Shown: piece after piece, positions 751 through 63,212 of the stretch | Position numbering within the stretch: position 1 is the stretch's first letter | How the letters are laid out: each line of letters begins with the position of its first letter | Source of the DNA: Gracilariopsis chorda | Taxonomy: Eukaryota; Rhodophyta; Florideophyceae; Gracilariales; Gracilariaceae | NCBI GenBank assembly: GCA_003194525.1 | Contig: NBIV01000258.1 | Coordinates: 53,491-117,490 of the forward strand | Length of the DNA stretch: 64,000 bases | Direction of reading: 5' to 3' | Position numbers and translations under genes: made by a program | The notes under the pieces: model-generated | Seen by the model: only the letters and a program-made list of their open reading frames with translations | What the model was told of the DNA's origin: nothing | The model's database searches: none

Positions 751-1449
751 TATGGTATTCCACCAACGACTGTAGGGTCTCGGTTGCAGAGGTGGATATC
801 CACGGGTAACGGCGTAAGCGGGCGCCGCCTTGCGGGTGACTGTCTAGTAATACAGGCTCCGGTGCCAAACGGTGATGTCTCGTGAGGGCACGAACGGACG
901 AAGAGTCGGAGGGTTCGAAGATCTCGGTGTCGAGTACAGCACAGGATTATCTGAGAAAACAGCACACAACGCCAAGTAAAATGGGCGAAACGGGAGTTAG
1001 TAATGACAGGAATATGAGGAGATCCTCGGAACGAGGGCTGTAGCTCAGATAACGTTAGGCACTGATGCTACAGGCGCTCCAATGTCGTAAACGACTTAGG
1101 ATTCCTGTAATTTACCACTTGGGTAAGCCGTTGGTTGTTGGTTGGCCTCCGCATTCCTCCCCTGGGCTTCAGGCCTTTACTAGTCCCATAAGAGCAGCGC
1201 GACGGCCTCACTGTCAAGCCTACACGTGTGGTTAGCCACTACTGGCACTAGAATAAAATATCGAATAAATTATTTGGCAATGGGTGCCAGGGTGGTACAG
1301 GTCTACACCTGCACTAGGGTGCCACCCATGAGACAGTTCTTTTCATAGCTGTCGCTCAGTAGCGTTAACCTCAGCTTCAATTGATGAGTTGCATCCCCCA
1401 ACTTAAGCGATAATCGGCACTCCGAAGCCATTGCATCCTGAATGCTACA
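751..1449 (-). repeat. 3' LTR of retroelement 1
   Basis: About 699 bases, matching 10957-11656. In the 120 bases I compared closely the copies differ at roughly one base in ten to fifteen, so the insertion is not recent. The outer end reads TATGG where the partner has TGTGG, so the canonical terminal TG is mutated here; the other end reads GCTACA. The perfect CAATA duplication next to it supports the boundary. Confidence 0.92.
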
Positions 1450-1491: not shown

Positions 1492-1499
1492 TATAAAAG
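1492..1499 (+). promoter_or_regulatory. TATA box of the antisense gene of retroelement 1
   Basis: TATAAAAG lies 43 bases inside the LTR boundary, on the strand opposite to gag-pol. It is followed by a pyrimidine-rich leader and then ATG at 1605, 113 bases downstream. Retroelement 4 has TATAAATA with ATG 112 bases downstream, so both motif and spacing recur. Confidence 0.7.
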
Positions 1500-1604: not shown

Positions 1605-3245
1605 ATGAACAAATATCCACCCTACGTGAATCCGCCGTCGTCCTATGACGATCTAGACGCTCCTGCTCAGCCTCCGGCCGCTTCAGGTCATCATCCGACA
1701 CCTTTTTCATAAACTGCGCCATTGCCGCAAAGCTCTTCTGGGCCAGCGGTCCCCACGTATCTTCTGCCTCCTGGCATACAGGCTCCACAGCCACCAATCC
1801 CCGCGGGTTCTTTCCTTTCGTATTCAGAATTGGTGGGGCGTGCCCCTTTGCAAAACATGAAAGTGTACGCACGAGCTCTTTGGTTCTTCCCATTGGCGGT
1901 CCGCAATGAAGAGCTTATCGGGAGCTAAGTGGTCGACGGTCGACTTTCTGACGGTGTCCCATGGTTTGCCTTATACACAACGGATTGGTTGAGCCATTTT
2001 GGCCTGCCTGATAGCGCAATAAGTCGTCATCATGGCGAATCCCTGGCGGAGCCCAGCAGATACTTCGTGCGACTGGTATATATGCGGATGCCCCGCGTCA
2101 TTGGGACGGTTCCCTTGAATGAGGATTGGGGTTTCGACACCTGGTATGCCCGCACCGGCGGAGAAGCTTACGCGTATGCCGAGAACCTGGCTCATCTGGA
2201 TACCCGTCAATGGCGGTGGGTCCGCAGCGTTACCAACGCAGCGCTCTGCTTCGACAATCCTCAGATCCGTGCGGAATTCTTCCTTCGTAAACGCGACATC
2301 CTCTACTGGGACTTGCCAAGGTGGGAGTAACGCGCGAGGTCGCGACTCGGGTACCTTGTACCATACCGAATGTTGGAGATCGACCGAGTGCAGTTCCGTT
2401 CGCGCGTTGGGCACTACATCCCTGTCCCGAGGCATTGGCATGAGATCGAGAGTCCTCGTGATTGCGCTGTGGAGCTCCTTCCTGCCTTGACCTAGGTGGG
2501 CTCTGCCCTTACGAACGATCCGTTCTCCGGTTACTGGGTAGTCGTCTACACCGAATGCATTGCCAAGGTGGCTGTGTATATCCTGTGGGACGTCTATGAC
2601 ACATAATGCTTGTGGTACATGAGCCCAACTGCTCGGAAATACTCGAGAAAACTCGATCTATCCTTCGTACTTGGCTTACGAGCCAACCAGGAGGAATTCC
2701 GTCGTCTGATAGACGTAATAGACCAGATTGACTGGAGCCTTGTGCCAGCTGAACAGGCAGCGCGTGGGTCACATAACTTCGATCACTCCCCGTGGAGAAA
2801 CGGCCCTGGCGGTGACTTCGTGTGGTATGATCCGTGGACCAGTCAGCACATCGATGGTGCACAGGCGAAACACCTACGCGAGAGTCCGCGAGCGATGCCC
2901 CCAACTCAGCCCACTGGCTACGTATTTGAACCGGCTCCGGTCAATCCTGACGCTCTCGTCGACGAACTGGGGAATCTCGAGGCCAATGCTGAGGCGGACG
3001 GGGAAGCCATGGAGGTGTCTTCACTATATGCGGGCGATGACGTCGAACCGAGTGCTGCAGCGATGCAGACCTCTGCTCAAGTGCCTAGTCAACCAATTGG
3101 TACGGGCAACAAGGGCGAGCTCGGCATGTTGAGGCAATTCCTCCTAGACGGTGGCATTCCGTCTGACCAGATCGCCAGTGGTCGTCAGCAGATGCTGAAC
3201 CTCTTGCGTCTCAGCATGGACGGCGGTCCATCCACGAACGCGTGA
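1605..3245 (+). pseudogene. Antisense gene of retroelement 1, decayed copy
   Basis: This reads opposite to gag-pol, between the chromodomain end of pol and the 3' LTR. From ATG 1605 one frame runs for about 546 codons to the stop at 3243-3245. It is interrupted only by nonsense codons (1710-1712, 1926-1928, 2328-2330 and two more before 2610), with no frameshift. The N-terminus is proline-rich. The middle and C-terminal parts match the antisense genes of elements 3 and 4 at protein level, for example RANQEEFRRLIDVIDQIDW here against EANIKEMLGLLDFIDRVQW in element 3, and YLVPYRMLEIDRV against YFFPYPNAEIERM. The tail carries a short LRQFLLDGGIP block also seen in element 2. I see no signal peptide, membrane segment or known domain. 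The function is unknown. I chose the ATG because of the TATA box 113 bases upstream and the recovered frame. Confidence 0.8.
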
Positions 3246-3449: not shown

Positions 3450-6400
3450 TTACGAGCTAGTGCGTCCGAGGACGATTCGACCGACGAGGGCGTCATCGAT
3501 ATTCTCTGAGACATCCAGTTTTGCGCGCCTACAGTAGCCTAACACCTGAGATCGCGGAAATTGAGTGGTGGGCTCCCAGGTGTCGCTATACGACGGATAT
3601 CCGTACCAGCGTACTCTGAACAGCGGACGGTTGTCCTCATCGTCCCATCCGTCGGCCATGATTCGTTCTATAACGTACTTCTCAGTAGGATCGGACTCTC
3701 CCGTCTCTGTTGGTTCACCCTCGGCAGTGGCCGTTAGCTTACGAGTTTCCTCGATTTGGTTGCCTCGCGACGAAAGATCTCGAGTCGCGAGTTGGCGCAT
3801 GGCAGGGCTCCTAACGACGGCCCGTTCCTGGCCCATTGTCCTAGACGTCCTGGTTTCCTCTGGTTGGGCGGTTGCCTTCAACGTCTGTTTCGGCTGTTCC
3901 GATTCAATTGGCGGTCCTACGACGCTCCGCGTCGCTTCGTGCTCGATACTTGCCCATGGGGGCTCCTCCTTTTCCGGTGGTACTGTATCTGGCTTGTTAG
4001 GGCTGTCCCCTTGTTGCACGGCATCCCGTAACGTCGGGTCAGCCGAAACACCCTTTTTGCGTGGTCCTGCCACTGCTCTTACATCCCTGTCATCCTGCTT
4101 AATTACTTCTGCGGAGATGTCGCGACGGTTCCGTGCTTCTGCACTTCGAGAGTCGACGCGCGACAGTGTGACTTCTGACGTGGCGCTCTCGCCTTCATCT
4201 CTTTCAGCGAGTGGCCGTTGCTTATTGAGCTCGGGCTCCTCCGTTCGGACTTCGGAACAGCCGTCTGGTCGGGTGTCCTTGGGAGACTTGTGCGCGATCT
4301 CCGCAAGCTTCCGTGGGGAAGGAGCAGCGTGCTGCACCGTAGCGGCACGGATTGCTTCCTTAGGGCCAGCAATTTGGGCTGGGCCAATAAGATTGCTCGT
4401 TTCTGAACGTCGGACTATCGACCCATCCTTCGAGGCTTGTGAGCCATCCTTTATGCCTTGTGCGCCGTGTGGCAGATATTTTGAGGCCACCTTCCCCCTC
4501 TTAGGCTCGTCGGCGACTTGCGGCGCCACCAGTGGCTGTGGCAGCTCCCGTGGCTCGATGCGGTCACGTGCAGCCTGCTCTGGCTGCGTGTCAGCTTCAG
4601 GGCTTGGTGCGCGCACCACCCCATCGCGTGAGACGCGTTCTACTTCATCACCTTTCTTGATCACTTCAGTGTTTTCGTTGAACTCGACAACTTCATACGG
4701 CTCTGTTGCAATCGGCGCAAGTTTATGCCGGCGCTTACGCTCGTTCTTGTTCTTGGAGTTCTCTTCATCTTTGCGGTCGATCCTCACGAAGACGTGTCTT
4801 CCAACTTGAAGATCTGGTAAAGCCGGTCGTAGGTTCGCATCATAATTGCGCTTGTAACTGGCTTGGGCCTTTCCCATTTCTTCTGCAGCTTGAGCCGCGC
4901 ATGCGCGTAGCTCATTCCTCCAGCGTCGGTGAAACTGGGTAGAAGTCTCCTCCTGGTCCCTATCCTGCGAGTCAATCTCGATCAGTAATGCCGGCGGGCG
5001 GCGTGATAGTACCAGCTCAAACGGTGCCAATTTCGTTGTCGAATGTACTTGCGTGTTGTATGCATAACACAGTGTATCTGTATAAAGGTCCCAATTTTTC
5101 GGATGGTCCGCAATGTAGTGCCCTAGCGCGGCTAAGATTGTGCGGTTGTACCGCTCCACTTGGCCGTTACAATGAGGATGATAGGTCGTGGTAAACACGT
5201 TCTTGATGCCCAATATCCTATATACATCTTGAAAGAAGCGTACAACAAATTGCTTACCATTATCTGAGAGCAGAACCTTCGGTGGGCCATAGTAATACAC
5301 CCAATGGTGGATAAACGCTCGTGCTATCACGGGTGCAGTAATCCGTTTAAGCGGAACAGTCTTTACCAGCTTGGAGAAGCGATCGGTGATTACCAAGAGG
5401 TATCGGTTTCCTCGCTTAGAGCGAATCAGCTCGCCAAGGATGTCGATGCTGACATACTGTCGGGGCGCTTTCGCCGGGAATAGCTTAAGTGGCTTCTTCT
5501 TTCTCCACAATTTCACTCTGTTCTTAGCGCAGGTTGCGCATAGCTTAGCTGTCGCGTGACAATCGATTGCCAAAGTTGGCCAATAGAAGTCCTTCCTGAG
5601 GCTCAGGTAGAGTTTTGGTCCTCCTGGATGAGCAGATAGCTGTGGATAATGGGCCAGATGCAGTCCCCTGCTCTTCAGCGAGTGAGGTATCACAATCTGA
5701 TCACTTTTCGACAGTTCGAATAATAATACCACGATCGTCGAGACGAAATGGTAGCTCCTCCCCACCGTGAAGAGGGGAGCGGATGCCCACACAGAAGGGA
5801 TCTGTGAACTGTTCACGTAAGAGCGCCTCGAGGGAGACACGCTCCAATTGTTGATCAGCAGGCATTTCCGTCGTCTGGGCGACAAGAAGGTCGAAGTAGT
5901 ATTCGTCCTCGTCGAATTCCTCCAGGATGTCTGGTTCCATTTCCACTTTTTGAGAATCACTCATTAGCAAGCATGGGATGTCGTCATCGACCGGTAACTG
6001 GGTTTCGCCCAAAGTTTCCAATCGCGATAGCGCGTCAGCACGCACGTTTGAAGTTCCCTTCTTGTAAGTGATGGTGAAGTCGAACTCGGAAAGGCGCAAG
6101 CCCCATCTCATAAGACGTCCCGAAGGGTCGGATATGGACATGAGCCATCGCAGGCAAGAATGATCGGTATTGACCGTGAAATGGACACTCTGTAGGTAAG
6201 GCCGAAGGATTCTAAGAGCCCATACCACAGCAAGGCACTCCTTTTCTGACACAGATTAATTCCTTTCTGCCTGATGCAGTGATCGAGACCAGTATCCGAT
6301 GGGATACCGTTTCCCGTCCTTATGGGTTTGAAAAAGGGCACACCCTACTTGATAATCGCTAGCGTCCGTGTTGACGGAAAAGAGCAAATTCGGTTTCGGA

Positions 6401-8498
6401 AGACTGAGCACAGGGGCTGAGGTCAGCATGCACTTTAGCGTTTCGAAAGCTTCCGTTTCGGGATTTCCAAATTTCTGCAACTGTGAAGGCTGAACTTTCT
6501 TCAAAAGGGCATTGAGAGGTGCAGCGATGTGCGAGTAGCGTGGGACGAATCGTCTGTAGACGTTACAAAGCCCTAGGAAGGCTCGTAGATGGGTCTGTGT
6601 CTTTGGAGGTTTCGCCTCACTTATTGCAACCGTTTGCACTTCCTCTATCTCCAAGGTACCTGGCTTGATCCGGTGTCCCAAATACTTGACTTGGTTCGTG
6701 AACTATTCGCATTTCTTGATCTTCAGTGTGATCCCTGCATGGTTGAGGGATTTGAGGATCACCTCCACGTCGTTGAAGTGTTCTTCATAGTCACGGCTGA
6801 CGACAATGATGTCATCCAAGTAGACTAAGCAAGTCTTCCACTTATACTGGGACAAGATGATGTCAATGGCGCGCTGGAAGGTGCCGTAGGCATTCGTCAA
6901 CCCAAAGAGCATTCGCTTAAAGGATAGAGCCACGCGTGGCATACTAAAGCGATTTTGTCGCGGTTCTCCGCAGCGACTGGTACTTGCCAGTATCCCCAAT
7001 TTGCGTCTAACCTAGTAAACAAATTGGCTGTTCCAAAACTATCGATAAATTCATCCATTCGTGGAAGCGGGTAGGTATTCCTGACCGTTACTGCATTCAG
7101 TTTCCTATAGTCAACGCAAAAGCGTAGCGAACCATCGCTCTTTAGCACGAGCACAACTGGGGACTCCCAAGCGGATTGAGCGGGCTCAACGATTCCCTTC
7201 TCCAACATGGAGTTAACGCGCTCCTGTTTGATTTGTCGAGTACGCGGTCCTGCACGGTAAGGTGGTTGTGCGATGGGTCTTGTACCCGGCAAAGTGTCGA
7301 TATGATGCTCTGTTGCGGCTATCTGGCCAATACGGCCGTTCCACATATGTGAAAACTTCAATAGTAGACGGCGCAACTTCGGTTGATGCTCCTCTGAAAC
7401 GTGTTCCATTTTCACGCCCTCGAGGGCTTTTTCGGCTTCTTCTTCCGAAACTTTCTCCTCCTTCAGTGGTTTCAGGCTATTTTGTTCCTCCATCAGGGTT
7501 GGGGGTGGTTGCTGCTCATTCGTTGATGTTAACCCTAGGACATCAGACGTCATTACGTGCATCGGTAACACCATAGATGGGTGAGGTAACGCGGTCCCAA
7601 TGACCTGATTCTTGTGCAACCGGCATTCGTTCGAACCGGTATTACTGACCAGAACCTGGAATGGCCTGTTAGGTTTCACCTGAGCGATGCCGTTCGCAAT
7701 GAGTACTCCATGAGTGTGATAGAGTGCCGAGTTCGGCTGCACCACAATAAGTCCATGCATTGTCGTTTTGGCGGTCACCCACGCCTGGCATTGAGGCGGT
7801 ATAACAGCCATTTGGGCGACACGAATCTTTGGGGAAGTTCTGCCCTGGGGGGTTTCATATTCCTGTGAAGGAGGCAGTGGAACAGCGGAAGCGGGTCGTC
7901 GCAATGGTCGGCGTACAATAGGTACGGTCGTGCCGTCTACCAGCTCAATTTTCCGACTCTTCAGACGAATAGCGTCGATAAACTTATCACAATAATCACA
8001 ACCCAGGACCACTGGCGCTGCTAACGTGGAACACACGATGAAAGGTAACATGAAAACATGATTTCTGACTTTGACCACAAGCTGTATGGGCCTCTTGTTA
8101 GCATCCCGGATATCCGGTAATACTGCCTCTTGGATTCGAGCCTGCTCGTCATCATTCAATTCCGATATCCTGATGAAGTTTGGGCCTGCACCCGTGTCGA
8201 GCACTGCTAGTTTGCGTGTCAGGAGCAATTGTGAAGAGCCAACGTTGGCATAGATCTTATAATTACGGCGAGCCATGATCATGACGAAGTCCATCCTTCT
8301 TCCTGGGCACACATATCGTATCCAAAGGAGCGTCAAACTGCAGTCAAGCTGCACCTGTTCTCCGACATTCGAAGATCTATCTGGCCTCAGAAGGACCTTC
8401 AGCGTAACTTCCCGGGAGCAGGGTAATGTTGGAACCCTGGCCAGCATAATGGGATCGATCCCTGCCGACCCCTTGAGGACTCCCTCCCCTAGTTTACC
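3450..8498 (-). pseudogene. pol: Pol of retroelement 1 (protease, RT, RNase H, integrase, chromodomain)
   Basis: Domains read in order on the minus strand. The aspartic protease has the active-site motif DTGAGPN near 8210. Reverse transcriptase has YLDD near 6820. RNase H follows at about 6400-6000. The integrase has an H-H-C-C finger, then D (SIDILG), D (LSDNGKQF) and E (NGQVERYNR). A long proline/glutamate-rich spacer leads to a C-terminal chromodomain containing RVRWYGYP and DTWEP near 3600. The frame changes near 6950 and again near 5705, and two nonsense codons fall in the middle part (about 6704 and 6257), so no full polyprotein can be made. Pol has no clear start of its own: its frame overlaps gag and is entered in the -1 frame at 8492-8498. 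Chromodomains of such integrases are known to direct insertion to modified chromatin. Confidence 0.93.
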
Positions 8499-10956: not shown

Positions 10957-11656
10957 TGTGGTATTCCACCAACGACTGTAGGGTCTCGGCAGCAGAGGTG
11001 GATATCCACGGGTAACTGCGTAAGCGGGCGCCGCCTTGCGGGCGACTGTCTAGTAACACAGGCTCGGGTGCCAAGTGGTGATGTCTCGTGAGTGAACGAA
11101 CGAACGAAGAGTCGGAGGGTTCGAAGATCTCAGTGTTGAGTACAGCACAGGATTAACTGCGAAAACAGCACACAACGCCAATTAAAATGCGCGAAACGGT
11201 AGTCAGTAATGACAGGAATATGAGGAGATCCTCGGAACGAGAGCTGTAGCTCAGATACCGTTAGGCACTGATGCTACAGGCGCTCCAATGTCGTAAACGA
11301 CTTAGGATTCCTGTAATTTACCACTTGGGTAAGAACTTGGTTGTTTGTTGGCCCCCGCCTTACTCCCCTGGGCTTCAGCCCTTTACTAGGCCCATAAGGG
11401 CAGCGCAACGGCCTCACTGTCAAGCTTACACATGTGGTTAGCCACTATTTGGCACTAGAATAAAATATCGAATAAATTATTTGGCAATGGGTGCCAGGGT
11501 GGTACAGGTCTACACCTGCACTAGTGTGCCACCAATGAGACAGTTCTTTTCATAGCTGTCGCTCAGTAGCGTTAACCTCAACGTCAATTGATGAGTTGCA
11601 TCCCCCAACTTAAGCGATAGTCGGCACTCCGAATCCATTGCATCCTGAATGCTACA
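10957..11656 (-). repeat. 5' LTR of retroelement 1
   Basis: About 700 bases, the partner of 751-1449. It starts TGTGGTATTCC and ends GCTACA in plus-strand orientation, giving the usual TG...CA form. The copy of the CAATA duplication follows at 11657-11661. An AT-rich stretch near 11455-11480 could hold the sense promoter, but I cannot fix a TATA box. Confidence 0.92.
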
Positions 11657-11661
11657 CAATA

Positions 11662-12248
11662 CTTGACCTTCGCCCTGTTCAACAACTTTATCTTCGCATT
11701 GTAGTAAAAAGAGTGGCAGGCTGAATTGTGAAAGTGAATTAAATTGGACCTCTACGGCTTTTAAACTTATGTTGTGCAGAAGACACCAGAGATAGTCAAC
11801 AATGTCAACGTTTGACAATTTCTCAAAGGTCCAACAACGATCGGAACGTTTCTGTAGTGTTCACACGAACTGCTATAGACAACTTAGAGAGGTTGAGCAC
11901 AGTATGTATAGAGTTTGACTGCCGGGCTCGTGGCAGGCGCTGGAGAGTGGATAGTGTCATACGTAACATACACGTGTACTACAGCAATGACATAAGTTAA
12001 CAATGCCATTGGTATTCTGTGTTTTATTGAGTACCATGTTAAGTAACTCTTCCGCTAATTACGACGTGTAATATTTCTGATACAACCGAGAAGCATATAA
12101 GGGTTTCCCTAGCTATGTCGGTTGCAGATCCAAGCAAAAGGAACAACAACGAACAAAATCAAACTCTTGGCGCCGACCTTCTGACAGCAATAACACCTCA
12201 CTACTAGAATCACTGCGTTCTAATATTGTGCAACATCACCGTACCTTT
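11662..12248. other. Spacer between retroelements 1 and 2, no supported gene
   Basis: About 590 bases of ordinary composition without a recognisable gene or repeat. The base of element 2's target duplication (CCTTT) ends this stretch. Confidence 0.6.
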
Positions 12249-13160
12249 TGTAGTGCAAACCCCGTAAATGGGTGACAGTCAAGGTCGTCCGAGTCCATGC
12301 CCTCTTTCGAGGTAAATTCAGCAGTTTAACCCTCCGTCTACCCAGGTGTCGGCTGTAAGACTGATGATAGTCCGGAAATACCACGGAGGTAAAGAGGAAC
12401 GGTTAAACAGGGAAACGTTGGAACACGCGCACGGGGGACCAGTGCAAACCCAGAAAAGTGGGCTATCCAAAGACAGAACGGATCCACCCGACGGGTCGTG
12501 CGGACAACGGGAACAGATCCGAAGGTGGGTGCAAGAGCAACATGAAACAACAAAAGAATACCCAATACAGGGTCGATATTTGTAACACAGAGAAAATATA
12601 AGTCACACGACAATTAGTGACCACAGTATATCTGTAGTCCTACCGAGCGGGTAGATAGTACAAACTGATTGCGGTGACCCTCCGGATGGAGTAGTGCACG
12701 CTGCAAATTCAATACAATCCAGAAGTGAACTCTTCAGGTCAAACGGAACACTTATGTGCGACCGAAGACTCGGATTGCCTTTACTTAGCGCTCGCGACAG
12801 TGAGGTCGCGCTTATCTAAGTAGGTACAGTACAGAAATAAATAGTAATAGTTAACTAAAATAGTGCAAACGTCCTCAGGTCCACACACGTGGCTAGAGTA
12901 GTGTCAGGCACCCTGAGGGGTCCTCCCCAGTAAAACATAACATCACAGCATGGTGCTATAGCACACGCGCACACGCTTCCATCATTCTGCAATCCACTCC
13001 AGATTGCTTCCTTCTTAGGTGAACCTGCACACACTAGACCATCCACTTGATGCCACTCCACGTGAGTCGAACTCATATACCGTAGAGCCATTGCGGCGAC
13101 TACGTCTCAGTCTTATGAGTTGCATCCCCACGGATTATCACGCAGATGCGTTGGTCCACA
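12249..13160 (-). repeat. 3' LTR of retroelement 2
   Basis: About 912 bases matching 20421-21333, beginning TGTAGTGCAAACC and ending GGTCCACA. The shared block with the LTR of element 4 (CACCCGACGGG near 12485, compare 62345) shows the two elements are related. Confidence 0.9.
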
Positions 13161-13172
13161 TCACCCCCTCGT
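13161..13172 (-). other. Polypurine tract of retroelement 2
   Basis: On the minus strand GAGGGGGTGA directly precedes the 3' LTR, the expected place and composition for priming plus-strand DNA synthesis. Confidence 0.6.
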
Positions 13173-13269
13173 CAGGCAAGGTTTCCTGCGTTCATCGAGC
13201 GGAAGTCGCAGACGGCGAAGTTCTTAAGTATCATACTCCGGTTGGAATCTGGGAACTCAACAGAGGGCT

Positions 13270-13461
13270 CCACGGCCAGTGGCAGTATCCGCAGAAGTCG
13301 CGGCCTTGCGAGCGAACCTGTTGAACTTAGGTATCCCAGTTCCGCCTGGTATGAATGAAGTGGGCCAGCTGGTAGGGTTCGCTGTGCAGCATACGCCAAG
13401 AGCGTTAACCCAGGGTGGTGCCGGTCCCTCATCGGGAGTTGAACAACCTCGCCGTACCTGA
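13270..13461 (+). pseudogene. Remnant of the antisense gene, retroelement 2
   Basis: Only the C-terminal tail of the antisense gene is left. The plus-strand frame ending at 13461 reads EVAALRANLLNLGIP, which aligns with GELGMLRQFLLDGGIP at the end of the element 1 copy. It has the same position (inside the 3' LTR) and strand. The conserved middle is gone, and no TATA box is visible behind the LTR. The short match makes this assignment weaker than in the other elements. Confidence 0.45.
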
Positions 13462-13514
13462 TCACCTAGTGATAGATCTTCTAAATACAGAATAAACACA
13501 TTGTGTTACCTTAT

Positions 13515-13558
13515 ACTTCTTCTTCTTGCTTCTTCTTCTTCTTCGCACTTCTTCTTCG
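13515..13558. repeat. CTT microsatellite-like tract
   Basis: Imperfect CTT repeats on the plus strand lie between the antisense remnant and the chromodomain end of pol. This is the same relative place as the tract at 3318-3375 in element 1. Confidence 0.6.
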
Positions 13559-13796
13559 TGTACTTCATAACCATGATGTCTGTCTTCATAAACTGTCAAT
13601 TCGGTGAAACCGTTAATTCGGTAAGTAAAGGGAATGCTCCTGGAACCTCCACTCCTATCAGAGTTCTCAACGTCTTACTCTCCTGGAGTACCTCCAATAA
13701 CTGCATTGCGGTCCCATCGACGTTCTGTGCGATCTCACCACGGATGATTATCCAACTTGTGCATTATCCGAAGTGGATTGGAGAGCTGACCGGGTC

Positions 13797-16700
13797 TTAC
13801 GGACGGTGATACGATAAGACCTTAGACCTTGGAAAGTGCTTTATGGGTTCCCATGTATCCTCTTCGGGTGGATATCCATAACATAAGATGAGGTAACGCA
13901 GTAATCTATTATGAGTTTCATGACCCATAATGCGCTCCACAACGAACTTCTGTGAATACACTTCAGTTTTTTTCGTGTTCATGACGCGTATCGTGGGCTG
14001 GTCTCCCTTTGTACACTCGAATCTGAGTTAAGAGCGCCACTAGAAGTGATACCAAGCCTTGTGCTGAGGGATGATAGCTTCACGACGTCGTCGTGTATCG
14101 TCGTGACGGCGAAAAGCTGGCTCACTTCTACGACGTCCCAACGGTTATCCGTAACTTTCAGCTGTAATTACTCACTCTCACGAGTACAACGAGCTAAAGA
14201 ACGTTTGTCATGCGCGAATACTCGCTAAACGGTAGCTTCGGAGATTCGAGATGTTCTCCTTATCCATGCGGATGTACTGTTGCGACCGAGAAGCGCACGT
14301 GCTGCACTCACTGCGCCAGGGCGGCGGTTCACAGAACACGGTGCATTTTCCACCATCTGATAGGTTTGGGCCAGTTCCAACATAGCCACAAGTTTACTGT
14401 GTGTCACCAACTGAGGTTGCGTTTACGAACGGTCACCACGGGGCGTGGTGCACACGCGTCACCGTACCCGGCACTGTAATCTGGTCTCCATTTATACGCA
14501 CAGCAAGGCTGTCACGGCGCACACCATTGTGTTAAATTCCACCAGTGACGGTATGACTTGAGCCCAAAAGTTTCATAATTAGCTTCCGTAAATTCACGGA
14601 GCTCTGTTCTTCTTTATACCACGAGATCAACCAATCCAGGTTATAATCGCCTTAGAAACACCCATGTGGGTCTGCAGAGACCGTCTTCTTGGTGCGTTTC
14701 AAAACTTTGCCAGAGCGATTATCCTTCTCCTTCGAAGCGGACGGTTTGACCACAGTACTGGTGTTACTAGTAGTGTCTTCCCGTACTGGGGACTTCAGTT
14801 CATTACTGACGTTACTCTCATTGAGTTGAGGTGTAGTGTCTCTCCTGCATTGAGCGTTCGGTTTCTCCATGGGCGTTTCTCCTTCTGGAGTTGATGCAGC
14901 ATTCCGGTGATATCCAGAATGCAGATTTCCCAGTGACAGCGGTGTTTCGATAGCGACTTCAGCGTCACTCTCCCCTCCTTTAGCCAGAGCTGGGGGTGCA
15001 GAAAGAACTTCAGGGGGAGAGTTATTCTAGTGATTATTTGCGGAATTTTCCGTTGTGTACCAGAGGACCCAACGGGTTGAAAATCCGATTGCGATGGTAG
15101 ATCGGCTAATCCGTGATCTGGAGTAGGAAGAATCACACGGCGCGAAAATGCAGCATGCGTGCTCTGCGTTCCATTCAGTTGGGATACCCCCGCAGGTGTT
15201 GCGGGTGCGATTACCACTTCCATGTTAGGAATAGTAGCTTAAGTGATGCGATCGCGTGATATCCGTTCTTGTTGATCGTTATTGTCCAACACAACTGTGT
15301 TTTCATGAATAGGTACCACTTGATAGGGTCCATCTACAATTGGAGACAGCTTATGGCGCCGTTCCAGGATTATAGTACTTCTTACGTACGAGTACAAAGT
15401 CATTTTTGGAAACCTTCAGAAGAGGTGTACGAACTTTGTTATCAAAATTACGGTTGTACGCGTCCTGAGCTCTTGCCATAGCCCCCCAAGCGATCAGTAC
15501 TATCTTCCATAGCCATTGTTTCCATGAATAAAGTTATAAACCTATCAAGGGGTTCTTCGAGAGCATAGGTTGTGCCTCGATGGCCATCCGTGGTAGAATA
15601 CGTGACAAAACCAATTCAAAATGTGATAAAGAAGTCACCAATGAACCTGGGTGTTGTTTGCGTATGTGATAGCATCGGTGTATAAATCCCACTCTTTGGG
15701 GTTATCCGCCACATGGGATCTTAATGCGTTAAGCATCGTACGATTAAGTCGTTCTACCTGCCCATTGCTTTGAGGGTGATACGTGGCCGTGAGCACGTTC
15801 TTAATCGTTAAGATTCGACAGAAATCCTGGAAAAACTTGGAAGTGAACTTTCCTCCATTACCTGAGAGCACATGAACGTGTGGACTGTACACGAACAACC
15901 AGTGTGTGACAAACGCGTATGCGACTGTGCTAGCGGTAGCTCGATTCAACGGCACAGTCCGTACTAGTTTTGAAAACCGATCATTTATCACCAACAAGAA
16001 CTTATTGCCATGCATGGTGCGTACTCATTCTACAAGAACATCAATCGCGACGAATTCGAGCGGTGCCCGTGCTGGGAATAAAATTAACTTCTTTGAGTAT
16101 CTAAGTAGCTTCACGTTATTCTTAGCACACTCTGTGCAAGAACGTCTAACTGCATAGCAGTCGAATGCCATATCGGGCCAGTAGAAATTTCTTTTGAGAG
16201 TCAAGTATACCTTTTGACTCCCAGTGTGAGCTCCCAACTTCACATAGTGAGAAATATGTAAGACTCGCTGTTGCAGTGAGTGCGGTACCACGATTTGGGG
16301 TGTGGATTCAACCAATCTAACCAGGTATCTTTGGTCATTCACCACAAATGCTATATGATCTCCGCCATTAGGGCGTGCTCGAATCTTTGTACAGAACGAA
16401 TCCAATTGTTGTTCACGGATCATCTCCTCTAGAGCAATTGGTACAAATGAACGAGCCGGTGGGTCCAAACTTTCGGTAGCAAATATGTCGTCACATACAT
16501 CATCCGAAAGGATTTCAGCACTTCCTCACAATTCTTCCACCATAACGCATGGTATATCCAGGTCTGCAGCTTATGCTTCCGCATGTGTTTCCAATCGAGA
16601 TAACGCATCCGCATGAGAATTAGAGCATCCTTTCTTGTATAGTATATCAAACTCAAACTCCAATAAGTGTGAACGCCAACGCATTAAGCGAACGGAAGGT

Positions 16701-19176
16701 TCCGTACTCTCCAAGAGCCATCGGAGGCACGCATGATCCGTGTACACCCTACAATGAGTAACTATAAGGTAGGGCCGGACCGTTATTAATGCCCATACGA
16801 CGGCGAGGCACTCTTTCTCAGAAACCGAGTAATTACGTTCATGCACGTTAAGACTTCGTGACCGATATCTGATGGGATTCCTCTCAAATTCTTCTGCGAT
16901 GTGAAATAACGCCCAGCCAACCTGCTTATCATTGGCATCAGTGTCCACTTCATGGGGAAGCCCAAGTTTGGGAAGAGCCAGGATTGGCGGTGATGTAACA
17001 GCTTCCACTAGCGTGGAGAAAGCAGCAGATTCTGCGTCACCAAAAGGTACCAAGTTCACTGGTTGTACCTTGGTTAAAAGCTTGTTGAGGGGAGCTGCAA
17101 TGTCTGCAAAAACTGGTAGGAAACGTCGGTATACGTTACATAATCCAAGAGAGGATCTCAGTTCCGTTTGTGTAACCGGATGCTTAGCATTATTAAGCGA
17201 TTTCACTCCAATCTCATCGACAGAGAGTTGACCTAGGCGAATAATATGCCCAAGGTATTTCACAGAATCTGTGAAAAACTCACATTTCTTCAACTTAAGA
17301 GTGATTCCTGCATCACGCAGTACACGCATGACGTTGCATACATGGGTTAAGTGGTCATCCGCGTTATCGGAAAACACGATGATATCGTCCAGATATACTA
17401 AGCAGGTTTTCCACTTGAACTGAGCTAACAATATATTGATAGCACATTGGAACGTAGCGTGTGCGTTAGTAAGTCCGAACGGCATACGTTCAAACCGAAA
17501 CAATCCTTCTTGACACACAAATGCGGTGTTATGGTGATCATCTTCTCGGACAGAAACTTGCCAGTAACCCCAGTGGGCGTCCAAAGCGGTGAACAACGTA
17601 GCACTCCCAAGTGAGTCGATGTATTCATCCATCCGAGGGATTGGATAGACTCCTTAACGGTAACCGCATTGAGGCGTCGGTAATCAATACAAAACCTCCA
17701 CGAACCATCGGGTTTTGGAACCAATACGACTGATGAAGCCCATGCTGACTGAGCGGGCTCTATAACGCCAGCGCGTAGCATTTTCTCGACGTGAGATTTC
17801 TCTTCTTCCCGAGCCTTCGGATTTGCCCAGCATGGGTGTTGAGCAGTTGGCTTTGTATCTGGAAGGAAATCAATACGGTGTTCCGTTATCCCTAATATTC
17901 CAAGGGAGCCATCCCACATGAATGTAAACTCACCTAGCATTTCTTGCAATCTTTCGCGATGTGTCCCAAGGAAATGGCTTAAATCCAAGTTTCCCAACTC
18001 TTCTACAGGTTCTCTGTTTAGAACCGGGCGGTAATGCAATACCTTTTTCGGGTTCCAGTCGTATTGACTCCAAGTTCTCCGTCTTCGCAGGTGCGATTTC
18101 GGCTTCAGCACTGCCTCGGTTTCAGCACAGCCCTCCCCCTCCTTTGGTTCTTCGATGTCAAGAACCTGAGCAACACGTATTCTCGTCCGAATGATTGCTG
18201 CCGGATGCGGAAGACCTGAACCCAGTACTTGGTTTTTGACTGACCATTGCGTGGGTTTGCCAAATGTAGCAACCAAGACCTGAAAAGGTTTGTCGGGCTC
18301 AACCGAGACACCACCATTCGCTAAAGCGAGTTGAAAATCATCGTAAAGTGATGGGAATGGCTGAATCACGTGCATACTATGCTCCTTCGTAACTGACACC
18401 CAGGTTTGGGACTCCGATGGTATTGCAATAGAGTTGCAAATACGAAGCTCCGTGGAAACTGGATTCATATCGGTAACCTCCTGTGCGGCAAGTACTGGGA
18501 TGCGATTGCGCGTAGCACGTTTCAATGGTTTCCGTACAATCGGTACTGTCCATCTCTCTTCCATTTCAATTGATCTCGCACGAGGGCGAATACCATCGAC
18601 GAAGCGATCACAAAAGTCACAACCAAGTATTACCGGTGCAGCGAGCTTTTCGCATACAAGGAAGTCGAGTTGTACCAGGCAGGTTCCCAATCTAACAACC
18701 AGAGATATATAACCAGACGTTTTCAACGGGTTATTGTTGGCGTCGGTGATATCCATCGAGGGTCCGAAGCGGATGTTACCACGAAGTGTCGGTGGTATCA
18801 AATCCGTGTGGGTTAGATTGGGGCCAGCTCGGGTGTCAAGAACAGATAAATGTCGAACCATGAACTGTTTGGAAAGCCCAACGTCAGCATAGACTTTGTA
18901 GTTTCTCTTGACCATCACCAAGACTCTATCTGGGATACGTAAAGTACGGGAACGTACCCATGATCGACGTAGAACCAATAACTGTTCTGATTCAACGTCT
19001 GTTTCCATCATCATCAGTGTAACGATTTTAGCAGCTGGGGAGCGAAGCTGCTCTGTCTCGGGCGTCTTTAACTGCGGCTTGGAAGATGCCCCCGAAAGGA
19101 AAACACCCGAAGTTAGTTTTTTGAAACGGATTGCACCGAATTCGCTGAAGCATCCACGTCGAAGGATTCTTGACAT
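13797..19176 (-). pseudogene. pol: Pol of retroelement 2
   Basis: The minus-strand order is as in element 1. The protease motif reads DTRAGPN, so the active-site Gly is replaced. Reverse transcriptase carries YLDDIIVFS near 17400. RNase H follows at about 16900-16600. The integrase finger and first catalytic Asp (AIDVLVE) are present, the second site reads LSGNGGKF so that catalytic Asp is Gly, and the Glu (NGQVERLNR) is kept. After a poorly preserved, basic and serine-rich spacer a chromodomain (YGYPPEEDTWEP) ends at 13797. The frame moves near 17600. Nonsense codons occur near 16020 and elsewhere, and the region 15600-14000 is heavily broken. Pol starts in the -1 frame relative to gag with a 64-base overlap. 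Confidence 0.9.
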
Positions 19177-20195
19177 ACACCAATCGCGGATACAACCTTT
19201 TCCACCTGGTTACCAAGGTTAGGTCGACGAACAGCATTGTCTGCTGACACCTAGTCTAGGTATGCTTGCAGAAACTCTTGTTGTTGATACGAACTACTCC
19301 TAACGCGAGTCTTCTACTCAGGTGTGAGGGCTTCGTACTGAGCGATTATCTAAACCCCATCCTTCGCGGGGAAATTGCAATTCGGTGCGCTATGACTGTG
19401 AAGGTAGCAAATATAAAATATTGGCGGGGCTGAAGCATCAGATGAACCATTGTCAACCCGGCGTGGTGCAGTGTCCTTCCAACCCGTTCGGGTGTGATGC
19501 ATACCGTTGTTCGAAAAAGCGAGAAGAGCTGATGGAACTCTATCTTTTCTGTACCACGCGGGGTCTCCATCCACGGTGGGATTTGATTTTGACCAAAGAT
19601 CCGTAGTTCCTAACGAGTCTGGGTCACTTCCTGCAAAATGGATGTTATCATTATCACCGATTGCGGTTCTATCATGCAAAAGCGACAAAGATGATGATTC
19701 TTCAACGTGAAGAGCTCTTGAAGATCGAGTTTTCGACTGATGTCGAGCACGATAAGTATCTCCCTCTGCTTGGGCAAATTGAACCAATTAAAGGTAGGTA
19801 ACTCTCCGTTTCTCTTTGCGAAGGCGAGCAGCCAGAGCTCTGGTAGAAGCGTCAAGACTATCAACAACCATGGTGCAGCGTTCCTGAGCGGAATACACGT
19901 TACCACAACGGTCAAACGCCTTATTCAAGCGTGTCAAATAAACCGTTTCAGTTTCAACAGGCTTCTGCCGTGTATCGCGAAAAGCGAAATTCGCGTCCTG
20001 TATGGCGTTACCAGTTGCATAAGACCTAAGTAGGTATCGAACCACTTCCGGCCAATAGGTTACCTCCCCCTTTGATGCATGGGAAGCTTCATGTACGGAT
20101 GTAAAGTGATCTTCAGCCATACCGGTTAGAAAGTACGGTAGAGCGACAGAACCCTTCGATGCTGATGGCATTTTACAACTAGCCAACCAAACCAC
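19113..20195 (-). pseudogene. gag: Gag of retroelement 2, N-terminus missing
   Basis: One minus-strand frame from about 20195 to the TAA at 19113-19115, with a nonsense codon near 19789 and three more after 19352. The capsid-like segment is preserved (ALPYFLTGMAEDHF, RSYATGNAI, RCGNVYSAQERC). The zinc knuckle near 19380 reads CYLHSHSAPNC preceded by Phe where the first Cys should be. Only 203 bases separate this from the primer-binding site, so the N-terminal and acidic part present in elements 1 and 3 is deleted. Confidence 0.83.
19116..19122 (-). promoter_or_regulatory. -1 frameshift heptamer A AAA AAC, retroelement 2
   Basis: On the minus strand the last gag codons read TCA AAA AAC TAA. 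A AAA AAC in this phase is one of the classic -1 slippery heptamers, and the pol frame continues exactly -1 (AAA AAA CTA ACT). The site overlaps the gag-pol junction, so it very likely made the Gag-Pol fusion when the element was active. Confidence 0.75.
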
Positions 20196-20400
20196 TCAGG
20201 ATACTGAAGAGATCTATCAAAATATATCCGCAGAGCGGAACAGACAAACAAATAAAACAAAGCAAACCTAAAACGAGGTCACTCGACAACGACACAACGG
20301 TCAAACTGATAACCAGTTCATCACTTTCCACGTGAGTCTTACTCCTAGAAAACATACCAGAAATTTTGTCAGCTTGAAACACCCAATCCAGCTTAAACCG

Positions 20401-20418
20401 TTCTAGGTTGGGAGATCA
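20401..20418 (-). other. Primer-binding site of retroelement 2
   Basis: On the minus strand TGATCTCCCAACCTAGAA starts 2 bases after the 5' LTR. It differs from the site of elements 1 and 3 at two of 18 positions, either from mutation or from use of a related tRNA. Confidence 0.6.
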
Positions 20419-20420
20419 CT

Positions 20421-21333
20421 TGTAGTGCAAACCCCGAAAATGGGTAACACTCAAGGATGTCCGAGTCTCTACCCTCTTGCGATGTAGACTCAGTGGTTGA
20501 GTCCTCCGCCTACCCAGGTGTCAGCTGTAAGACGGATGGCGGTTTGGAAATACCACTGAGGTAAAGAGGAACTGTTAAACAGGGAAACGGTGGAACACGC
20601 ACACGGGGGACCAGTGCAAACCCAGAAAAGAGGGCCATCCAAAGACAGAACGGAACCACCCGACGGGTCGTGCGGACAACGGGAACAGATCCAAAGGTGG
20701 GCGCAAAAACAACAAGAAACAATAAAAAGAATACCCAATACAGGGTCGATATCTGTAACAAAGAGAAAATACAAGTCACATGACAACTAGTGAACACAGT
20801 ATATCTGTAGTCATACCGAGTGGGTAGATAGTACAAACCGATTGCGGTGACCCTCCGGATGGAGTAGTGCACGCTGCAAATGCAATACAATCCAGAAGTG
20901 AACTCTTCAGATCAAACGGAACACTTATGTGCGACCGAAGACTCGGGTTGTCTTTACTTAGCGCTCGCGACAGTGAGGTCGCTCTTATCTAAGTACGTAC
21001 ACTACAGAAATGAATAGTAATAATTAAATGAAATAGTGCACACGTCCTCAGGTCCACACACGTGGCTAGACTATTGTCACGCACCCTGAGGGGTCGTCCC
21101 AAGTAAAACATAACACCACAGCATGGTGCTGTAGCACACTTGCAAACGCCTCCATCATTCTACAATCCACTCCAGATTCCTACCTTCCTACGTAAACTTG
21201 CACACACTAAACCATCCACTTGATGCCACTCCACGACAGTCCAACTCATATACCGTAGAGCCATTGCGGCGAATACGTCTCAGTCTTATGAGTTGCATCC
21301 CCACGGATTATCACGCAGACGCATTGCTCCACA
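20421..21333 (-). repeat. 5' LTR of retroelement 2
   Basis: About 913 bases, partner of 12249-13160, with TG...CA ends (TGTAGTGCAAACC ... GCTCCACA). The two copies differ visibly but align along their whole length. Confidence 0.9.
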
Positions 21334-27148: not shown

Positions 27149-27556
27149 CTTTTTTTGACCAACAATAGACAAGAGATAAAGCTATCACCATTATTGTACC
27201 TTACAACTGTATCCAACGGGGCTTGTACACATGTAGATGATCAAAGGCCTGATCAGAACAAAGTTATGTTGGCATCCAGCCCTTTCAACTTCTATGTGGG
27301 AGTACAGCCCTTGTTCTGCGTGTCTGCTAGCTTAAAACCCCGCTAAAAAACTTAACCTCAAACATAGCTACTTATGCTACGAGCTACATACAGTGCGGGC
27401 CACTCCTTTAAGCACATCAAGCCACAATATTTTATTGTGTGGTTCTGCATACAATATCGGTATGATGCTGTGATTGAAGATTGTAGATCATTTAGTTGAC
27501 CACAGCTGTAGACACATTTCGTCATAGAGAACTGAAGTGCAATGCCTGTCGCTAGG

Positions 27557-28346
27557 TCTGCTGAAGACTTGGTTCTTTTTCTGGGTCACCGGTTTCGCTC
27601 ATCTTATGAGTTCGTACCGAGATCGGTCAACGGCTACGTAGCCGAGCCACTGCCTGTGCCAGCGCGTATCGCCGCGTGGGAATTTCCAGGTGTGTGTAGA
27701 TGGGCGCATGGTTGAACTTTTCCAATAACTGGTACATTTACTTATTTAGAATTATTAGTATTATTTACTCTACTGTGGGGGACGGTACTTAAGGTACCCG
27801 CGTTGCCCATGTAAAGCCACAAAAAGGGTGATCTCCCTGATCGGAGGCTCTGTTCGTTTCCGCCTTCACAGGTAGTTAACTCTGCAGGTAGCATTACTCC
27901 GTTGTGCACGGCTCGTTCAACCCCCTTTAACGCCCAAAACATTACGTGGATTTACCATCCAGTATCTTGGTTATTTCCCGCTCTGCGGTTTCCTTTCCTT
28001 TGATCTTTCTGGCAACGCCGATCTTTCCCGAGCTAATCGCGTGGCTGGCTGTCGGAGCACCTCCGCACCCATTTTCCTTCCCTCATTTCTGGCCCCTTTT
28101 TTTGTGCAACCCATGATACTTGGTGCGTCCCGTATAACAGTGAAGCTGCCACTCCAGTTGGTGTACTGCCTCTTTGGAGGATACTGATCCTTATTCAATC
28201 AACCTTTCTGCGCAAGTCGCAAATGGTCAGTCTTGGTTTACACCCGGCCTCGTTCACTGATCCCCGGAAGGGCTCTACTGTCGTGCCTACCTCGTGAGAG
28301 AAAGATTCAGACGTATTTGTCGTGCTCTCCCCACAGGGGCATTGCA
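27557..28346 (+). repeat. 5' LTR of retroelement 3
   Basis: About 790 bases matching 38366-39165. It begins TCTGCTGAAGACTTGG where the partner has TGTGCTGAAG, and ends GGGGCATTGCA. Both copies share the run TTATTTAGAATTATTAG near 27745 and 38555. Confidence 0.88.
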
Positions 28347-28354
28347 CTAAAAAG

Positions 28355-28372
28355 TGGTCTCCCGACCTAGAA
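28355..28372 (+). other. Primer-binding site of retroelement 3
   Basis: TGGTCTCCCGACCTAGAA, 8 bases after the LTR, is identical over 18 bases to the site of element 1 although the surrounding DNA is unrelated. Confidence 0.75.
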
Positions 28373-28463
28373 CAACTGTCTGTATTATTTCCTCTTTGAG
28401 GCCTTTTGCCCATTTTTTTGGTTTTGGTTGTTGTTGGACATTCCGTTGGAACTTTTCTCATCG

Positions 28464-30566
28464 ATGGGACGCAAGCCATCCGGTTCCGAAGCGTTTGCAA
28501 CTCGCCCTCACTCCCACGAGGGTGGGGGAATCCAGGAATTGGATTATGCCCGCGCACCGGGAATGAAACTGCAACAGGAAGAACCAACCACGGCAACGCC
28601 GGGGAATTTGACCCCAGGAGCCGGGCCTGTAACAGCTGTTACGGTTGTTTCCCTGCCTCCACCGTTAGTCAACCACGTCCAAACTGTCCGCCTGGAGGAG
28701 CAGTTTCGCGCTCTGCGAGCGGCACACAACGCCCTCATAGGGGAACTCACATCTTTACGAGGAACTGTGTAAGCTCACCATGTGCAGCGCTTGGCAGATG
28801 AAATCTGTTTATTTTAATCGGACGTCAACTCTATGCTCCAGTTTTTTGGCATTCCGGCTTCCTTCGTCAAAGGTATGGAGAACCGATTCGATCGGGTGCG
28901 AATCCGATTGGAATCGGTCGAGAAGGCTGTGCACACTCCCACCGCTGCAGCCAAACCAGTGGTGTCTGAGCAAGTCGATCGCCCGGACGTTCAGGGTAAA
29001 CAAAAGTCACCAAAGCACAGAAGGAAGCAACATTACGACTTGGACTCCTCGAGCTCGTCGGATATTGACCAGAGTGACTCGGATTATTCCATTTCGTTGG
29101 AGCACTCTTGTCATGCCGATTGTTATGGGCGGAGTTCCCGCTCAAAGCGGTTGATGTATACTAAGGTTGCCATCAGCGCCCGTACGAAGGGTAAAAGGCA
29201 CCCAGGGCTGAAGCCCCTAAAGCCGACTAACCCGCTAAACAGGGAGTTGTTATCCTACCGGTACTACCTGCTGGAAGACTCCTTTTTAGGAAGGACGCCT
29301 CGTTACACGGGTAAGGTGAAAGACTGCATCAAGCGGACTTAGCTTTTTATGCGTAAGCACTACTTTACTGGGGATGATCCAATTCTGGTTCCCAAATTTC
29401 TCACACGTTTGTGGTAGACGCCAATGTTCTCGGTATAAGTGAGGCCCAAGCTTACTGGGCGTTACCGTATTTTTTCCAAGGTGTTGCTTAGGATCAGTTA
29501 AGTTGCATTCGAGGTTCCTCGCGGGCCTCCGAGGGAGGTGTAACGTGTTCGTCGGAGGCAGTGCAATACCTACTGCGCTCCTACGCCACCAACACCACTA
29601 TCGAAGCAGCTGTCCTTGCGCTATGCGACACACGCCAGAAGCCTGGACAATCAAGAACAGACTACTCGGTAAGCCTCAAGAAGGCCTTACACGTTGTGGT
29701 AATGTTTACCCTTCGGGGGAGCGCTGTAGCATGTTTATAGATGGACTAGAACCAGCCATCAAAACATTGGTAGCCCACTTTCGGGAGCAGTAGCCGAAGA
29801 TGAGAAACCTGGAATTGATCCAGTTCGCACGCGCAGAGGCTGAAGCTCTGCGTGCACGTAATCTGGATACCCGGCAGAAGGCAATCCGAGCACTTATGCC
29901 AGAGACGGAATCTTCTTCGCTCTCCAATGGAACCAGCGACAATCCCAATCCGGGTTATGACAAAATTTAAGTCATCCATCAAGATGGTGTTTCGATCCCG
30001 ACTACGGACTTGCCGTCGAAGACGGAGTGTACATTTGACGCTGCGTTAGCGGAAACGCAGGTGAACCCAACGATAAAAACATACGGTAACCGGATGTCAG
30101 CCTCGAACAAACTGTTTTCAAACGGAATGACCCGTGGTCAGCGCCCTGGATGGGTAGGCAAACAGAATTCCAGGAGGTTCTTTAATAATCGGTTGTCACA
30201 ACTGCGAAGCGCGGGATTTCGTTTGATATGTCACTTGTGTTACAAGCACGGACACAAATCCCCACAGTGCCTTCTAACTCTTCGGCAGATGCCACGAGTG
30301 GTTATGAAGCCCTGACCTCAGAGGAAAAGAGCTCCGTGCCCGTGGCATCGTACCTCCGTGCCAAGACGGATTTTCCCAGTACAATGGCTTATTCACCGCT
30401 GCAGCAGTCAAAGCCGGTGCAACCGGTTGGTTCTTCACCGACCCTGCCACAGGGAAGTACTCCTTCCATCATCGCTCACACGAGTTCTAATCCCGAAACG
30501 TACAATGCTTTCGTCACTGAGGAACACGGGCGCGAGCCCGACACAACCCTTTCACAGGTAAACTAA
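28464..30566 (+). pseudogene. gag: Gag of retroelement 3
   Basis: Starts near ATG 28464 with a basic stretch, then a leucine-rich segment (RLEEQFRALRAAHNAL) and an acidic serine/aspartate block near 29045-29100, as in element 1. The capsid-like part follows (RCGNVYPSGERC near 29690, LIQFARAEAEALRAR near 29820). A complete CCHC zinc knuckle, CHLCYKHGHKSPQC, lies near 30230, the only intact one in the window. The frame moves several times, but the last part, ending at the TAA 30564-30566, is again in the starting frame. Gag coats and packages the element RNA. Confidence 0.8.
30557..30563 (+). promoter_or_regulatory. Candidate -1 frameshift site, gag to pol, retroelement 3
   Basis: Gag ends CAG GTA AAC TAA, and pol continues in the -1 frame (GGT AAA CTA ATT). 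GGTAAAC is the same heptamer as in element 1. About 13 bases downstream CTCCC CCGT GGGAG forms a strong hairpin, the usual partner of a slippery site. Confidence 0.55.
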
Positions 30567-36032: not shown

Positions 36033-36442
36033 CCGACTGCGCGGATGAGTCGAAGAAGAGGAGTGACCTTCTGGAAACTCCGCATCATTCGGTCGGCCTC
36101 TGCAGTAGTCGTCCGGCCCCTTTTCTCTCGTATTATTTTCATTTTCACGACGGATATCCAACGTCGTTGGTTTTCTTTTTCATCCAGCGTGCTGGTTTGC
36201 AACTCCTGTCGTGTTCCATTCGCATGGTTTTTGTTTCCATCGATGATATTGTGCATTGTCGCGGGCTGCAGTAACTCGGTTAATCCCATCGAAATGGTTA
36301 TGGTTCCCAGGACCGGGTTTGTCCCGCGCTTCAAAGATTGAACAAGAAGCAAAAAACGAGAAGTTTTTGAAACCCACGGAAACGAGATAGCTTTTATTGG
36401 AAGTACGCATGTGAAAAGCTAGGCTATGCAGGTGGAAATGCA

Positions 36443-38176: not shown

Positions 38177-38365
38177 TGAGCGCCGAGGTACTCGGGAAAC
38201 CCGTGGTGACGGAGGGCAAGGAGGAGAGCGATAAACCCCGTAGACGGGCGTGCCCTTACGGGAATGCCGTGCGCTTATGGGAAAGGCGTGCCATGTCGAA
38301 CCCTCTTGTGAGGTTTGCGCCCTGTCTTGAGAGGGGGGATATGAAGCGCAGTGCCCATGCCTGGG

Positions 38366-63108: not shown

Positions 63109-63212
63109 GTCCCGACAAGGGAATCGCCGAGATACCGGTCCCCCGTACCAACACGGTTACAACTGATCAACCCTCAGTACCTTCTTCAACAGACTCTGCG
63201 CCCCTCTCTGCT

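What the first reader, a model, noticed from the sequence alone, without database searches (positions are those of the whole stretch)
1605..3245. A conserved unknown gene on the antisense strand of a Ty3/gypsy family
Seen directly: elements 1, 3 and 4 have a gene opposite to gag-pol between pol and the 3' LTR, and element 2 keeps a remnant. Protein blocks match in order between copies whose DNA differs strongly (RANQEEFRRLIDVIDQIDW and EANIKEMLGLLDFIDRVQW; YLVPYRMLEIDRV and YFFPYPNAEIERM). In element 1 the frame survives about 546 codons with nonsense codons but no shifts. Antisense ORFs near the 3' LTR are known from some plant Tat-lineage elements (Retand, Ogre); I know of none with this sequence. 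Inference: an accessory protein selected for in the element life cycle, for example in regulation, export or particle function.
Basis: partly seen in the sequence, partly recalled or inferred. Interest (0 to 1): 0.87.

Follow-up and report, generated by a model that had tools for sequence, protein, structure and literature searches.

The report
Antisense gene in seaweed jumping genes
A large family of jumping genes in a red seaweed carries an extra protein gene written backwards next to its tail end, and natural selection has kept that protein in shape, although what it does is not known.

Summary
Window 1605-3245 (+) is a decayed copy (546 codons, 5 in-frame stops, no frameshift) of a real protein gene opposite to gag-pol, between pol and the 3' LTR of a Ty3/gypsy element. 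Relatives sit at 36452-38131 (-) and 63195-64000 (+, cut by the contig end); element 2 shows at best a weak C-terminal remnant. In the genome (Gracilariopsis chorda, a red alga) the frame is often intact: 20 of 39 full-length rows in one capped search. dN/dS is 0.67-1.12 among sister copies but 0.12-0.26 between sublineages of this group. Sampled carriers group in one RT clade; the gene is also in Agarophyton. The protein matches no Pfam cut-off, no PDB sequence, and not the plant TRP28 domain. Element 1 has TATAAAAG between LTR and ATG, but several groups lack it. A second RT group carries an unrelated antisense gene with a papain-like Cys-His-Asp pattern. Antisense genes in this slot are known from plants and a fungus, function unknown; this is a new protein family, in red algae. 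Its role (nuclear regulator preferred, particle role next) is inference; no transcript or structure was seen.

The parts
751..1449 (-). 3' LTR of element 1 (element runs on the - strand)
   Evidence: 93.9% identical to the other LTR over 704 columns; ends read by eye
10957..11656 (-). 5' LTR of element 1; duplication CAATA at 746-750 and 11657-11661
   Evidence: ends read by eye
1492..1499 (+). TATAAAAG, candidate core promoter of the antisense gene, 113 bases before its ATG and outside the LTR
   Evidence: TATA-like words at a like place in L019, L022 and L035; none between LTR and gene in the L020, L021, L024, L025 and L027 groups
1605..3245 (+). antisense gene of element 1, 546 codons and stop, 5 in-frame nonsense codons, no frameshift
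3450..8447 (-). pol region of element 1 in broken pieces (RT, integrase, chromodomain); last pol match ends at 3480
12248..21333 (-). element 2, LTRs 12248-13160 and 20420-21333; its RT groups with carriers
13294..13437 (+). possible C-terminal remnant of the antisense gene in element 2
   Evidence: L025 tail E 0.021, same place with L019, L021 and L020 at E 0.62, 1.3, 2.6; weak
27533..39171 (+). element 3, LTRs 27533-28352 and 38342-39171 (84.0% identical over 833 columns)
   Evidence: called E4 or W_E4 in the scripts
36452..38131 (-). antisense gene of element 3, frameshifted
63195..64000 (+). antisense gene of element 4, N-terminal half, frameshifted, cut by the contig end

Best explanation
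A dedicated accessory gene of one group of chromodomain-bearing Ty3/gypsy elements in gracilariacean red algae. Shown: it is a protein-coding unit opposite to gag-pol, between pol and the 3' LTR, shared by many element sublineages and by two algal genera, and under purifying selection between sublineages. Inferred: it is transcribed apart from gag-pol, by an antisense transcript that starts in or just inside the 3' LTR, so that its dose is set independently of the particle proteins. Most likely it is a trans-acting, non-structural protein, with a constrained core of about 350 residues, an acidic linker and a C-terminal helix-pair-like tail, working in the nucleus on element nucleic acid or chromatin, to control element expression or blunt host silencing, much as proposed for maize Grande gene23 and Retand.
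For: Intact frames in 20 of 39 rows that cover query residues 1-607 (72 of 1783 candidates scored). Same anatomy in the 18 fetched loci with an open antisense frame; RT matched on the opposite strand in 17 of 19 loci (no RT match in the other two pieces). In the 7 of 18 loci where the script met a pol-strand frame of 300 codons or more, the two stops are 173-229 bases apart. dN/dS 0.12-0.26 between E1-group lineages with dS above 1, against 0.67-1.12 among sister copies. The 19 carrier rows, element 2 and L048 are one side of a branch with support 100/100 in the RT tree. Agarophyton chilense proteins join one of two G. chorda groups in the antisense tree (midpoint root). Constraint is strongest in about residues 75-440; a tail pattern like LxxLRxFLxxxGxP recurs, in full or in part, in 9 tails, with weak Ish1-type hits. 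TATAAAAG before the element 1 ATG.
Against: No transcript was seen. No domain match supports nucleic-acid binding above noise. Of 27 proteins, 27 are net acidic and 8 have no basic run by the pattern used. TATA-like words between LTR and gene are missing in five of the groups seen. N terminus and C tail are weakly constrained. The antisense gene is less constrained than RT and integrase in 10 of 10 pairs. Whether young carrier-clade elements without the gene exist is open.
Confidence: 0.43

Rival explanations
1. Accessory protein with a cytoplasmic, membrane or particle role (packaging, assembly, import of the pre-integration complex) rather than a nuclear regulator.
For: Selection between sublineages; no basic run in 8 of 27 proteins, and 4 of 27 have a 19-residue hydropathy mean of 1.62-1.86, which can mark a membrane helix.
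Against: A separate antisense unit does not suit a stoichiometric particle protein (inference); no capsid-like match; 23 of 27 stay below 1.6 in hydropathy.
Confidence: 0.3
2. The antisense RNA, not the protein, is what matters (dsRNA, silencing or interference), with the frame a passenger.
For: Gag-pol and antisense transcripts would converge, with stops 173-229 bases apart in 7 of 18 loci.
Against: dN/dS 0.12-0.26 between sublineages and proteins 34-63% identical between groups where synonymous sites look saturated.
Confidence: 0.05
3. A host gene captured in reverse, carried without use to the element.
For: Two G. chorda matches are filed as host hypothetical proteins, BWQ96_10156 and BWQ96_08668.
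Against: The 8 of 19 database homologs that bear a name are from Agarophyton or G. chorda; 11 are unnamed. The gene goes with element sublineages and stays constrained.
Confidence: 0.1
4. Chance open frame or mutational artefact on the strand opposite a sense gene.
For: Sister copies show no frame signal (W-C24 ratios 0.79-0.94 in six frames).
Against: Between sublineages, stops and codon positions together single out the antisense frame; 20 of 39 full-length rows are open.
Confidence: 0.01

Closest known systems
Maize Grande gene23 (Ty3/gypsy)
   Same: Antisense ORF between pol and 3' LTR; in Grande transcribed from its own upstream promoter, protein nuclear (parts 1 and 2 of 3 of PMC7264820).
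   Different: Plant host; no sequence comparison with gene23 was made here. This element has a chromodomain integrase.
Retand elements with antisense TRP28 (PF04195) ORF
   Same: Slot and orientation; 97% of recently active clusters carry it; regulatory role proposed (passages of PMC11963269).
   Different: No PF04195 match in 7 members at E up to 1 and 19 at E up to 10; Retand is non-chromoviral.
Boty of Botrytis cinerea (fungal Ty3/gypsy)
   Same: Antisense ORF between pol and 3' LTR (named in PMC7264820).
   Different: Sequence not compared; the gene name I searched for is recalled and gave no paper.
HTLV-1 HBZ
   Same: Antisense gene of a retrovirus, nuclear protein (PMC11963269 passage); antisense promoter inside the 3' LTR (PMC7264820).
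   Different: Retrovirus; sequence not compared; likeness of layout only.

Membership tests
Antisense additional ORF between pol and 3' LTR (aORF-3R) of LTR retrotransposons | Lies between pol and 3' LTR | tested here: met
Antisense additional ORF between pol and 3' LTR (aORF-3R) of LTR retrotransposons | Opposite strand to gag-pol | tested here: met
   16 of 150 RNase H rows have a listed A row within 6.5 kb downstream on the opposite strand, 0 of 150 on the same strand
Antisense additional ORF between pol and 3' LTR (aORF-3R) of LTR retrotransposons | Present in most copies of the family and conserved like other element proteins | tested here: inconclusive
   Carriers were chosen by the gene and searches are capped, so the share of copies lacking it is unknown; conserved, but less than RT and integrase in 10 of 10 pairs
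Antisense additional ORF between pol and 3' LTR (aORF-3R) of LTR retrotransposons | Antisense transcription | not testable with these tools
   No RNA data; TATAAAAG in element 1 only suggests it
Plant Retand/Tat lineage | Antisense TRP28 domain (PF04195) | tested here: not met
Plant Retand/Tat lineage | Non-chromovirus | tested here: not met
   chromodomain PF00385 E 6.3e-07 in element 1 pol
Env-like third gene | Sense orientation | tested here: not met
Env-like third gene | Transmembrane segment | tested here: inconclusive
   23 of 27 proteins stay below a 19-residue hydropathy mean of 1.6, 4 of 27 reach 1.62-1.86
Papain-like cysteine peptidase (second family B only) | Ordered Cys, His, Asp catalytic residues | tested here: inconclusive
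   C239, H332, D345 invariant in 6 of 6 rows; no Pfam match and no PDB match better than E 0.11 for L059 and L061

The most novel reading that the evidence does not exclude
In red algae the slot between pol and the 3' LTR is a general port for antisense accessory genes: at least two RT groups of Ty3/gypsy in one genome hold unrelated, selected antisense proteins, one of unknown fold acting as a nuclear regulator or anti-silencing factor with its own promoter, the other a papain-like peptidase or deubiquitinase.
Probability: 0.3. Interest if true: 0.78.

Novelty: new member of a known kind. Interest (0 to 1): 0.6.

Why it matters
What antisense genes do for LTR retrotransposons is an open question (PMC7264820, PMC11963269). 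A further group of hosts, with two unrelated antisense genes in separate element groups of one 91-Mb genome, argues that the antisense position itself has a use, perhaps a dose or timing independent of gag-pol. Many open frames make simple predictions for strand-specific RNA and for protein work.

Tried and rejected
Rejected: chance ORF; plant TRP28; a relative in IMG/VR by two short patterns, 19 stretches matched, 0 confirmed; PDB relatives, best E 0.58 by one sequence and 1.1 by profile. Env-like is rejected on orientation only; hydropathy is not clean. Hints not trusted: E3_binding in 6 of 19 members, best E 0.029, Ish1 in 1 of 19, E 0.092; Ish1 in 2 of 9 tails, best E 0.16, and DUF6127 in 2 of 9 tails, E 0.0044; the same scans also gave unrelated families at like E-values. 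Not settled: whether carrier-clade elements without the gene exist; one search scored 40 of 177 candidates and did not list the places asked about. Carrier recombination was seen in one pair only.

Full report
What is there. The window is contig C258:53491-117490 of a 91.3 Mb genome. A protein filed as BWQ96_10502 of Gracilariopsis chorda, on a 25,778-base contig, lies letter for letter in a locus of contig C439, which has 25,778 bases; so the host is the red alga G. chorda. Element 1 is a Ty3/gypsy element on the - strand with integrase zinc finger, integrase core and chromodomain and LTRs 93.9% alike. Between pol and the 3' LTR, on the + strand, lies the reported frame, with 5 nonsense codons and no frameshift. 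The two further copies in the window are frameshifted; element 2, whose RT groups with carriers, has at best a C-terminal remnant.

It is a gene. A search with its last 188 codons gave 923 first-look candidates, of which 150 were scored, giving 150 matches. With a relative of 607 residues, 39 rows cover the whole query and 20 of these have no stop inside (72 of 1783 candidates scored). Eighteen fetched loci have an open frame of 546 to 642 codons next to frames of the opposite strand, and RT was matched on the opposite strand in 17 of 19 loci. Where the neighbouring pol-strand frame is 300 codons or longer (7 of 18), the stops are 173-229 bases apart; in the other 11 the script met shorter frames at -158 to 577.

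Selection. Nei-Gojobori counts in the element 1 group give dN/dS 0.67-1.12 between sister copies, 0.23-0.46 at middle distance, and 0.12-0.26 between sublineages where dS exceeds 1. dS above 1 is imprecise. Among close copies of other groups the ratio ranges from 0.33 to 2.09, the highest at dS 0.004. This is the pattern of decay after insertion laid over constraint in the lineages that persist. In six-frame controls, sister pairs show no frame signal; between sublineages the antisense frame has the lowest pN/pS (0.31-0.35) and 2-7 stop positions. One other frame (- 1) has 0.45-0.50 because its third positions coincide with those of the gene, but holds 36-38 stop positions. Fifteen proteins, 31-68% identical to the first, keep 24 invariant columns. 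In 10 of 10 pairs the gene changes faster than RT and integrase, for example pN 0.27 against 0.11 and 0.16 for L019-L020.

Age and inheritance. In an RT tree of 40 rows, 19 carriers, element 2 and L048 (state unknown) form one side of a branch with support 100/100; 19 rows of other families lie on the other side. The root is the midpoint, and the program warns of long branches (L036, element 3). Carriers were picked because they carry the gene. Starting from the 150 best RNase H rows instead (of 3024 candidates), 16 have a listed A row downstream on the opposite strand, 13 a B row, 121 none listed, and 0 of 150 have one on the same strand; lists are capped, so 'none listed' is not absence. Of 19 database homologs, 6 are from Agarophyton chilense, 2 from G. 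chorda, 11 unnamed (8000 candidates scored each). In the antisense tree, midpoint-rooted and quick, the Agarophyton proteins join the L019-L021-L035 group rather than the L024-L025-L027 group; so the gene probably predates the split of the two genera. L021 and L035 have pol pieces 91% and 83% alike but antisense genes 67% alike (pS 0.25 against 0.72), so the two parts can be exchanged between lineages.

What the protein is like. 546-642 codons in open frames; variable N terminus, constrained core (about residues 75-440 of L021), variable acidic linker, and a C-terminal tail with a pattern like LxxLRxFLxxxGxP. No Pfam family reaches its cut-off in 7 open frames or 19 database members, and no PDB sequence relative was found. 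Hydropathy is ambiguous in 4 of 27. The tail looks to me like helix-pair motifs of the SAP/LEM/HeH kind (recalled); only weak Ish1 matches support it.

Expression. In element 1, TATAAAAG lies 113 bases before the ATG, between LTR and gene; sister copy L010 has TTTAAAAG there. L019 and L022 (TATATAAG) and L035 (CATAAATA) have TATA-like words 43 bases inside the LTR junction; the element 1 word is about 42 bases inside, by eye. L020 and L023 have TATATAAA only on the LTR side; the L021, L024, L025 and L027 groups have none between LTR and gene. In the L024, L025 and L027 groups the first ATG is 37-59 bases from the junction, and in L019, L020 and their sisters the first ATG lies before it, so starts are uncertain. 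Transcription is not shown.

A second antisense gene. Of five other-family pieces (L059-L063), 0 matched family A at E 0.01, but L059 and L061 have 414- and 398-codon frames opposite to pol that match each other (26% over 185 columns, E 3.7e-07). Genome searches gave 105 and 73 rows (101 of 184 and 104 of 128 candidates scored). By position, 9 of 9 RT rows of one group (support 93/94, below the program's star) have a B row at the expected place, and 0 of the other 11 sampled rows have one listed. Six B proteins share invariant Cys, His and Asp, which I read as a papain-like peptidase; Pfam and PDB do not confirm it, and the one database homolog is G. chorda's own. One close pair, L064-L066, has dN/dS 0.17.

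Comparison with what is known. [quoted passage not shown] origin and function are unknown, and Grande's protein is nuclear with its own promoter (parts 1 and 2 of 3 of PMC7264820; passages of PMC11963269). Here the slot is the same while protein and element lineage differ. Literature searches in the held library listed no report of such a gene in a red alga; passages of a Gracilariopsis lemaneiformis genome paper (PMC5970526) give LTR elements as 17.04% of that genome without such detail; the G. chorda genome paper is recalled, not seen. Passages of PMC8365987 and PMC6338049 held nothing on such genes. Passages of an Ectocarpus paper (PMC12477816) note an opposite-strand accessory gene in a DNA transposon, a different kind of element.

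Verdict. The gene and its selection are shown.

Noticed in passing
L059:145-1386 (-), L061:1729-2922 (+), L064-L067; window 11-373 (-): Second, unrelated antisense gene family (B) in another Ty3/gypsy group, with invariant Cys-His-Asp suggesting a papain-like peptidase; a decayed B piece also lies at the left edge of the window.
   Followed up: partly
L059 (C66) N terminus: The B protein of L059 begins MARTKPTAKK, which looks like the histone H3 tail (recalled); L061, L064 and L065 do not share it, so possibly chance.
   Followed up: no
L021 versus L035: Pol pieces 91% and 83% alike but antisense genes 67% alike, pointing to recombination between element lineages.
   Followed up: partly
contigs C573, C819, C883, C1001 and others: RNase H matches spaced about 5.68 kb apart head to tail, as if compact Ty3/gypsy elements form tandem arrays; assembly artefact not excluded.
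   Followed up: no
window 56148-57431 (-) and 57758-60670 (+): DDE_Tnp_4 transposase frame beside a 970-codon frame without Pfam match on the other strand.
   Followed up: no
window 52038-53102 (-): Frame with a weak GNAT acetyltransferase match, possibly a host gene.
   Followed up: no
window 26165-26841 and 62078-61400: Inverted stretches 73% alike, perhaps LTRs of related elements, one next to element 4.
   Followed up: no
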